In this document: positions 10,524-12,694 of the stretch, piece by piece
Position numbering within the stretch: position 1 is the first letter of the stretch
How the letters are laid out: the number at the start of each line of letters is the position of its first letter
Source of the DNA: Candidatus Avelusimicrobium pecoris
GTDB lineage: Bacteria > Elusimicrobiota > Elusimicrobia > Elusimicrobiales > Elusimicrobiaceae
NCBI GenBank assembly: GCA_902761975.1
Contig: CACWMG010000008.1
Coordinates: 1 to 33,431, forward strand
Length of the DNA stretch: 33,431 nt
Reading direction: 5' to 3'
Notes under the pieces: generated by a model
Seen by the model: only the letters and a program-made list of their open reading frames with translations
The model's database searches: none
Told to the model about the DNA's origin: nothing
Made by a program: the position numbers and the translations under genes

Positions 10524-11564
10524 ATGGAAAACACCCTACTCCAAAAATTACTTGACAAACAGGTACTACCCAAAGAAGAACTTGTGCAACTTTTGCTGGG
10601 GACATCCCCGCAAGGGTTGTTTGATGCTGCGGACCAAGTGCGCAAACAATATGTGGGGGACGGAGTGTATTTGCGCGGACTGATTGAATTTTCCAGTTAC
10701 TGTAAAAATGATTGTATGTACTGCGGGTTGCGTAAATCTAACATGCACGCGCAACGTTACCGTTTGTCCCCCCCGCAAATTATCAGTACCGCACAGCAGG
10801 CGGTAGCGCTAGGTTATAAAACGATTGTACTGCAAAGCGGGGAAGACCTGTGGTTTGATACGGATAAGCTGTGTGCAATCGTGCGCGAAATAAAAAAAAT
10901 GGACGTTGCCATTACCTTAAGTATCGGTGAAAAATCGCGCGAAGAATATGCGGCATACCGGGCGGCCGGGGCAAACCGTTACTTACTGCGCATAGAAACT
11001 ACGGACAAAAATTTGTATGAAAAATTAGATCCGCAGATGAGTTTTGAAAACCGCGTGCGCTGCTTGCAAGATTTAAAAGAACTGGGGTATGAAGTAGGGT
11101 CCGGCTCGTTGGTGGGGTTACCGGGGCAAACCCTGGAAAGTTTGGCAGATGATTTATTGTTTTTTAAAAATTTACCCGTGGATATGGCGGGTATCGGGCC
11201 GTTTATCCCCCACCCGCACACGCCTTTAAAAAACGAAACAACCAACGGGCATTTTGAGCTATCCTTAAAAATGATGGCCCTGATGCGCCTGTGACTACCG
11301 GATATTAACATCCCGGCTACCACCGCTATGGAAACGATCCACCCGCAAGGGCGTTTAATTGCCCTGCAGTGCGGGGCCAATGTAGTCATGCCCAATGTAA
11401 CCGAAACAGCTTACCGTAAACAATATGAGCTGTACCCGGGTAAAATTTGTACCGGCGATCAGGCCGCCCAATGCCGCAGTTGTGTTCAAGCCAAAATAGA
11501 AAGTATCGGCCGTCACGTGTCCACCGGGAAAGGATTTCACGGAGATTATTTAAAAGGGCGTTAA
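10524..11564 (+). CDS. hydE: HydE-type radical SAM maturase, interrupted by in-frame TGA
   Basis: HydE helps build the active-site cluster of [FeFe]-hydrogenase. Residues 60-67 (CKNDCMYC) are the radical SAM CX3CX2C site; SGEDLWF, LRIETT and LVGLPGQT also fit HydE. The frame reaches TGA at 11292-11294 after 256 codons, then continues in the same frame for 89 more codons with strong similarity (LPDINIPATTAMETI, GANVVMPNVT, YPGKICTGD) to TAA at 11564. With the stop read as one residue the length is 346, normal for HydE. The interrupted position is a Leu-like residue in relatives, so this is a recent nonsense mutation, a sequencing error, or readthrough. No hydF or hydG is in the window. Confidence 0.85.
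11292..11294 (+). other. In-frame TGA within hydE
   Basis: TGA followed by CTA, so the termination signal is TGAC, a weak context in bacteria. Immediately downstream, CCGGAT (11298-11303) can pair with ATCCCGG (11310-11316) with one bulged C, a small hairpin four bases after the stop. The loop lacks features of a bacterial selenocysteine element. Confidence 0.8.
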
Positions 11565-12694
11565 GGTTGTTGGTTTTCCGGCGTAATTTGACTGGGATTA
11601 AATACGGAAAGATTGCGAAATTCCAAAAATTTTGCACGTAATTGCTTATCTTCAATTCCTTTTTCAAGTGCATTGAAAAAACGCTGGGCTAAGATATATT
11701 CTTCGTACGCCCCGGGAATTTGTTTTAATTGTTCTACAGAAAGTATCACTCCATTTTTGTAAATATTACGACGGGGACGAGTTCCGTTGTGTTGGGCAGA
11801 CCATTGTTGCAGTTGTTCAAATAACTCGGCTTGAGTAGGAACGGATTGCCGCTGCCATAAATTGGCCAAACGTGCTATATCTTCAGCGGGGGCCGTGGCG
11901 TCTTTAAGTACTTGACGGATGCGCCGCGCCAAGGTAACCTCTTGGTGTTGCTGTGGGGTTAGCTTCTCCGTAGAAACAGGTATATTGTTTTTCACAATTA
12001 AACTGCGTGGGTAACGGCCAAATTGGTGCAGATAAGTTTGTAGTTGTACATATAATTCTTGTGCACTGGGAACCGCGTGCTTGCGTGCGGACTCTTTCCA
12101 GAGGGCCGCTAGGGTTTGTACATCCGGTGTATTGGGCTTTTTGTGGTGTTTCACTTGGTTTAATAAATCCTGAATTTGATGAGCCAAGCGGACTTCGGCC
12201 TGTTCTTGAGGGGGCATCTGGTAGATGTTTTTATAGCGAGAATTATTAGGCATATAAATAATACTGCGGGGACGTGCCTGATGTTCTTGTATGTAAGCGC
12301 GTAATTGGGTTAATAGCTCAGCCGCTGTAGGCCCTTGCTTTTGTAAATTGGGCGAGGTCTCCAGTAGCTGACGCAACAAGTATAAGTCCGGGTTGAAGCG
12401 GATATCTTCCCCTTGTTTGCGGGCTCTTGTAAAGGTATTACTAATGGCTTGCCCTAAACGTACCTCTTGTTGTTGTGGCGGGGTCATTTCCCAGAGCCGC
12501 AAACGCACTCCATTTTGGTAAATCATATTTTTGGGGCGCCGGTGGTTGCGTTCAATAAACGCACGGGTTTGTTCCAACAACTGTTTAGTAGAAACCGCTT
12601 TGGGTAGTTTGGGTAGTGCTTTGGTCTGTGCCCACACGGCAGGGGACATACACCCAAAAGCAAATAATATGGTTAAAGTTTTAATGTAATTCAT
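11561..12694 (-). CDS. Secreted protein with four tandem repeats, unknown function
   Basis: A 377-residue exported protein: signal peptide 1-22 (cleavage after AVWA). The rest is four repeats of about 78-88 residues, starting near 38, 127, 213 and 290. Each has a helix (LLxQLRAYIQEH type), a motif RPKNMIY / RPRSIIY / YPRSLIV / RPRRNIY (53, 141, 228, 306), a short N-x-hydrophobic strand, then a helix with QxExxLAxxI. The pattern faintly recalls the helicase-associated repeat but I cannot assign it. The gene converges on hydE: the TAA of each shares the TTAA at 11561-11564. The ATG follows a CATAAT box by seven bases. Confidence 0.8.
   Translation of the reverse strand: MNYIKTLTILFAFGCMSPAVWAQTKALPKLPKAVSTKQLLEQTRAFIERNHRRPKNMIYQNGVRLRLWEMTPPQQQEVRLGQAISNTFTRARKQGEDIRFNPDLYLLRQLLETSPNLQKQGPTAAELLTQLRAYIQEHQARPRSIIYMPNNSRYKNIYQMPPQEQAEVRLAHQIQDLLNQVKHHKKPNTPDVQTLAALWKESARKHAVPSAQELYVQLQTYLHQFGRYPRSLIVKNNIPVSTEKLTPQQHQEVTLARRIRQVLKDATAPAEDIARLANLWQRQSVPTQAELFEQLQQWSAQHNGTRPRRNIYKNGVILSVEQLKQIPGAYEEYILAQRFFNALEKGIEDKQLRAKFLEFRNLSVFNPSQITPENQQP

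What the first reader, a model, noticed from the sequence alone, without database searches (positions are those of the whole stretch)
10524..11564. hydE with a single in-frame TGA in a weak stop context
The hydE frame is full length (346 codons) apart from one TGA at codon 257, and the 89 codons after it are clearly conserved HydE sequence with no other lesion. The stop is followed by C (TGAC, the weakest bacterial UGA context) and a small hairpin starts four bases later (11298-11316). Either a very recent loss (TTA to TGA is one change, and relatives have Leu there), an assembly error, or programmed readthrough producing two HydE forms. If hydE is really dead, hydrogenase maturation and H2 output would fail unless another copy exists.
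Basis: partly seen in the sequence, partly recalled or inferred. Interest (0 to 1): 0.68.

Follow-up and report, generated by a model that had tools for sequence, protein, structure and literature searches.

The report
Hydrogenase-maturase gene with one nonsense codon
The only copy found of a gene needed to build iron-iron hydrogenases in a gut-type Elusimicrobium draft genome is interrupted by one ordinary stop codon, most likely a very recent knock-out mutation or a sequencing/assembly error rather than a new way of reading the genetic code.

Summary
Window 10524-11564 is a full-length hydE frame (346 codons, TIGR03956) with a single in-frame TGA at codon 257 (11292-11294) and conserved HydE on both sides. 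The window lies in a draft Elusimicrobiaceae genome (1.24 Mb, 59 contigs, 85.5% complete) with one hydE; hydG, hydF and two HydA-type genes are present. All 60 other same-genus hydE matches lack an internal stop; the nearest relative has Leu (TTA). Substitutions on both sides look like those of intact relatives, so the lesion is very young or not real. In about a third of the assembly (356 homologous regions, ~102,000 codons) no other convincing internal stop was seen.

Programmed readthrough is not supported: UGA (UGAC included) is a normal stop here; RF2 is present; no SelB, tRNA-Sec or UCA-anticodon tRNA was found; tRNA-Trp has a 5-bp anticodon stem and is identical in a relative lacking the stop; the hairpin is weak and its codons occur in relatives without a stop; a +1 frameshift would not rescue the gene.

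Verdict: an ordinary recent nonsense allele (~0.5) or a consensus/assembly error (~0.4). Only reads or a second genome of this species can decide.

The parts
10524..11564 (+). hydE frame, 346 codons plus TAA, interrupted at codon 257
10524..11294 (+). part translated if UGA terminates: 256 residues, with the radical-SAM CxxxCxxC cysteines (60, 64, 67)
11292..11294 (+). in-frame TGA (codon 257), followed by C; Leu codon in the nearest relatives
11295..11564 (+). conserved HydE C-terminal part after the stop: PATTA segment, last barrel elements, C-terminal cysteines
11298..11316 (+). weak potential hairpin formed by conserved coding sequence; not specific to the stop

Best explanation
The in-frame TGA is a very recent nonsense mutation in the only hydE of this strain, or of the strain that dominated the assembly; a single T-to-G change from the Leu codon TTA seen in the nearest relative is the simplest route. 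Translation stops at the UGA through RF2 and gives a 256-residue product that lacks the last part of the radical-SAM barrel, including the conserved PATTA segment and the C-terminal cysteines, and should be inactive. The strain would then make little or no mature H-cluster although hydG, hydF and HydA are still there. Shown: the stop, a single copy in the assembly, absence of the stop in relatives, no sign of decay on either side. Inferred: that the base is real, that the product is inactive, and the consequence for H2.
For: Stop and conserved flanks. No second hydE in the assembly. RF2 present, UGA a normal stop for 39 of 293 scored genes, TGAC for 9 of them. No other convincing internal stop in 356 homologous regions (~102,000 codons), so the consensus is not generally bad. 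Near-complete relatives (G030, G107, G110, G120, G122; 92-99%) lack HydE and HydG matches yet keep HydA, so loss of maturation has a precedent in the family.
Against: hydG, hydF and HydA are retained and hydE shows no relaxed selection, so a loss must have been caught within a very short time, which also fits an error. 61 of 66 genomes of the genus searched have a hydE match, so loss is rare. No reads or second genome of the species were available.
Confidence: 0.5

Rival explanations
1. Assembly or consensus error (including a minority-strain base chosen by the assembler): the living organism has a sense codon there and hydE is intact.
For: Draft metagenome assembly with 59 contigs, N-filled scaffold gaps and contig breaks inside hydG and hydF. 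One base separates the stop from the relatives' commonest Leu codon. No decay on either side of the stop. The partner genes are all kept.
Against: No other convincing internal stop in about a third of the assembly, so errors of this kind are not frequent.
Confidence: 0.4
2. The stop is real and leaky: tRNA-Trp(CCA), which carries C at position 9, misreads some UGA-C and makes a little full-length HydE (Trp at 257); at the strongest, a regulated two-product gene.
For: UGA followed by C; tRNA-Trp with C9, the base that, as A9C in E. coli tRNA-Trp, is reported to facilitate UGA reading (PMC13092985); intact sequence after the stop.
Against: The same tRNA-Trp is found in G078, whose hydE has no stop; its anticodon stem has 5 bp. 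The stop is not conserved in any of 60 congeners. UGAC is a normal terminator here. The hairpin is not better than many shuffles and its codons occur in relatives without a stop.
Confidence: 0.07
3. UGA is recoded: selenocysteine, a suppressor tRNA, genome-wide UGA reassignment, or a prfB-like +1 frameshift.
For: An in-frame UGA in an otherwise intact maturase gene.
Against: No SelB over its cut-off (best 170 bits, cut-off 242) and no tRNA-Sec over its gathering score. None of the 39 tRNAs has a UCA anticodon. RF2 is present and TGA ends 39 of 293 scored genes. Relatives have Leu, not Cys or Trp. The HydE sequence continues in the zero frame, so a +1 shift does not rescue it.
Confidence: 0.01

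Closest known systems
HydE, [FeFe]-hydrogenase radical SAM maturase (TIGR03956; T. maritima HydE, PDB 3CIW/3CIX)
   Same: Full-length match to the family model when read through; cluster-binding cysteines and conserved C-terminal part present
   Different: One in-frame stop at codon 257
Ordinary nonsense alleles / young pseudogenes of bacteria
   Same: One stop, otherwise intact frame, homologues intact, no stop-reading machinery found
   Different: Nothing tested here sets it apart; whether the base is real is unknown
Bacterial selenoprotein genes (UGA with SECIS, SelB, tRNA-Sec)
   Same: In-frame UGA with conserved coding sequence beyond it
   Different: No SelB, no tRNA-Sec, Leu in homologues
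prfB programmed frameshift (CUU UGA C)
   Same: UGA-C
   Different: Codon before the stop is CUG, and the downstream frame is the same, so no shift is needed or useful

Membership tests
HydE (TIGR03956) | Score over the equivalog cut-off (254.6 bits) over the full model | tested here: met
   412 bits, model 2-338/340, with TGA read as a residue; the 256-residue part alone 302 bits
HydE (TIGR03956) | Radical-SAM CxxxCxxC cysteines | tested here: met
   C60, C64, C67 invariant in the alignment
HydE (TIGR03956) | Complete barrel and C-terminal part actually made | not testable with these tools
   Depends on the stop; residue 257 ends helix 243-257 in the model
Old pseudogene | Further lesions and relaxed selection | tested here: not met
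   No other lesion; dN 0.13 on both sides; 2 changes at 148 otherwise invariant sites, against 0-4 in relatives
Selenoprotein gene | SelB and tRNA-Sec in the genome | tested here: not met
   Neither over its cut-off; genome 85.5% complete
UGA reassignment / suppressor tRNA | UCA-anticodon tRNA or 4-bp-stem tRNA-Trp, RF2 lost, many in-frame UGAs | tested here: not met
Programmed readthrough | Stop conserved among relatives | tested here: not met
   0 of 60 congeners have it
Programmed readthrough | Measured readthrough product | not testable with these tools
   No proteomic or ribosome data
Consensus error | Reads disagree with the consensus | not testable with these tools
   No reads available

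The most novel reading that the evidence does not exclude
The stop is real and fixed, and leaky UGA-C decoding by the C9 tRNA-Trp makes just enough full-length HydE (Trp at 257) to mature hydrogenase, so that the stop acts as a dial on H2 metabolism.
Probability: 0.04. Interest if true: 0.6.

Novelty: new member of a known kind. Interest (0 to 1): 0.15.

Why it matters
If real, a lineage has been caught at the first step of losing [FeFe]-hydrogenase maturation, in a family where some near-complete genomes show no HydE or HydG yet keep HydA. If it is an error, it is a reminder not to infer metabolic loss from one base of a draft metagenome assembly. Neither changes general knowledge.

Tried and rejected
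Selenocysteine (no SelB or tRNA-Sec over cut-off; Leu in homologues). Suppressor tRNA (39 tRNAs, none UCA). 4-bp anticodon-stem tRNA-Trp (it has 5 bp). prfB-like +1 frameshift (the C-terminal part is in the zero frame). A second hydE (the only other hit, 27% identity, is HydG). Old pseudogene (no decay). Stops in two distant genomes of the phylum: a TAA near codon 333 in G282, and one at the end of the match in G287; C-terminal length variation, not comparable. An apparent frameshift in gatA of the same genome is an N-filled scaffold gap. A pattern scan of viral contigs for the site found nothing. A paper search for premature stops in metagenome-assembled genomes returned nothing, and Poole et al. 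1995 on stop context is not held.

Full report
What was checked. The frame 10524-11564 translates to 346 codons with one internal TGA at codon 257 (11292-11294), followed by C. Read through, it is HydE by the NCBI equivalog model (412 bits, cut-off 254.6). The piece before the stop also passes the cut-off (302 bits), and the piece after it is recognised on its own (92 bits).

Where it lies. The window is contig 8 (G000:C8, 33,431 bases) of a draft genome of 1,239,875 bases in 59 contigs, 85.5% complete. Named relatives of the gene come from Elusimicrobium / Elusimicrobiaceae metagenome genomes, several of them from rumen or gut samples. hydE lies between pnp/rpsO and ppdK, as in most relatives whose flanks were compared, so it is the orthologous copy; the gene between hydE and ppdK varies.

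Partners. No second hydE was found in the assembly. HydG is split between the ends of contigs 15 and 32, and HydF between the ends of contigs 20 and 21; in both cases the pieces are open up to the contig ends and follow on in model coordinates, so these look like assembly breaks, not lesions. Two HydA-type proteins (open frames of 607 and 488 codons) match PF02906; the larger carries TSCCPAW, MPCSAKKYE and EVMSCQGGCVAGAGQP.

Relatives. Of 66 genomes of the genus searched, 61 (this one included) have a hydE match, and none of the other 60 shows an internal stop. At codon 257 relatives carry Leu (TTA commonest among the nearer ones; also CTG, TTG, CTT, CTA, CTC) or Met/Val; the nearest (82% identity) has TTA. 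TTA is one T-to-G change from TGA. Two distant genomes of the phylum show a TAA in the match, near codon 333 in G282 and at the end of the match in G287, in the variable C-terminal tail; these are not comparable.

Age. Against the nearest relative dN is 0.13 on both sides of the stop, while dS is about 1.6 overall or saturated. At 148 sites invariant in the other sequences the window differs at 2, within the 0-4 seen in other members. If the gene had been free of selection for a fraction f of this branch, roughly 260f changes would be expected at those sites (assuming about 2.2 nonsynonymous sites per codon and a branch dS of about 0.8), so a loss would cover no more than a few per cent of the branch. 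This is inference. It fits a very recent mutation and an error equally well.

Assembly quality. In the window plus 20 further stretches (432 kb, about a third of the assembly), 356 regions homologous to relatives' frames cover about 102,000 aligned codons. The hydE TGA is the only convincing stop inside a conserved gene; the other flagged stops were judged by inspection to lie upstream of starts or in shadow frames. One apparent frameshift, gatA, is an N-filled scaffold gap. The other flagged frame changes, mostly short or low-identity matches, were not pursued one by one. The consensus is not generally bad, but one wrong base cannot be excluded.

Recoding. SelB and tRNA-Sec are not found over their cut-offs. 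39 tRNAs were found and none has a UCA anticodon. RF2 is present. TGA ends 39 of 293 scored genes, TGAC 9 of them. The tRNA-Trp has a 5-bp anticodon stem (CCGGU/ACCGG, read by eye) and C at position 9, and an identical gene is found in G078, whose hydE has no stop. A9C in E. coli tRNA-Trp is reported to facilitate UGA reading (PMC13092985), so some leakiness is possible but is not an adaptation to this stop. On context, U after the stop favours termination (PMC5289835; PMC11126739); PMC11126739 finds G rather than C the most permissive base in E. coli. The hairpin falls within the range of shuffled sequences and its codons occur in relatives without a stop. A +1 shift would leave the HydE frame.

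Consequence. A model of the read-through protein (pLDDT 94) puts residue 257 at the end of the helix 243-257. Everything after it would be lost: the PATTA segment (264-268; T. maritima 266-270 by the alignment), the remaining barrel elements and the C-terminal cysteines. HydE is a distorted TIM barrel of eight strands and eight helices (PMC6212873), so the 256-residue product should not work; this is inference. In a purified in vitro system, leaving out HydE cut hydrogenase activation from about 640-740 to about 33-37 units (PMC3457958), so loss of HydE should nearly, perhaps not wholly, abolish maturation.

Precedent. Relatives at 92-99% completeness (G030, G107, G110, G120, G122) have no HydE and no HydG match but keep HydA proteins with H-cluster motifs. 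Losing maturation while keeping HydA has thus probably happened elsewhere in this family, which makes a real loss here plausible.

Verdict. A real, very recent nonsense allele (0.5) or a consensus error (0.4); useful readthrough 0.07; other recoding 0.01. The finding is ordinary either way. The deciding data are reads or a second genome of the species.

Noticed in passing
L229, L231, L232, L233, L234 (G030, G107, G120, G122, G110): Genomes 92-99% complete with HydA proteins carrying H-cluster motifs (TSCCPAW, MPCxAKK, EVM[AS]CxGGCVAG[AG]GQ) but no HydE match and no HydG match. How such HydA would be matured is unexplained.
   Followed up: partly
L068/L069 and L033/L035 (G000 contigs 20, 21, 15, 32): hydF and hydG of the same genome are both broken by contig ends, more than expected for two given genes; possibly strain variation at these loci.
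   Followed up: partly
L105:1501-1575 (G000 contig 2): tRNA-Trp(CCA) has C at position 9, the base that as A9C in E. coli facilitates UGA reading; an identical gene is found in G078.
   Followed up: partly
window 11561-12694, - strand: Protein made of several tandem repeats, no family match, only about 35% identical to the counterpart in the nearest relative although the neighbours are 81-96% identical; the slot between hydE and ppdK holds other genes in other relatives.
   Followed up: partly
L048:3001-3975, L049:3001-3987: HydE of two MAGs labelled Alphaproteobacteria (one from goat rumen) is about 60% identical to that of the window, closer than many Elusimicrobiota copies; possible gene transfer or binning error.
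   Followed up: no
G266 contig 18, 7673-8674 (-) and 10998-11999 (+): Two equally scoring hydE copies in inverted orientation on one contig; possible duplication or palindromic misassembly.
   Followed up: no
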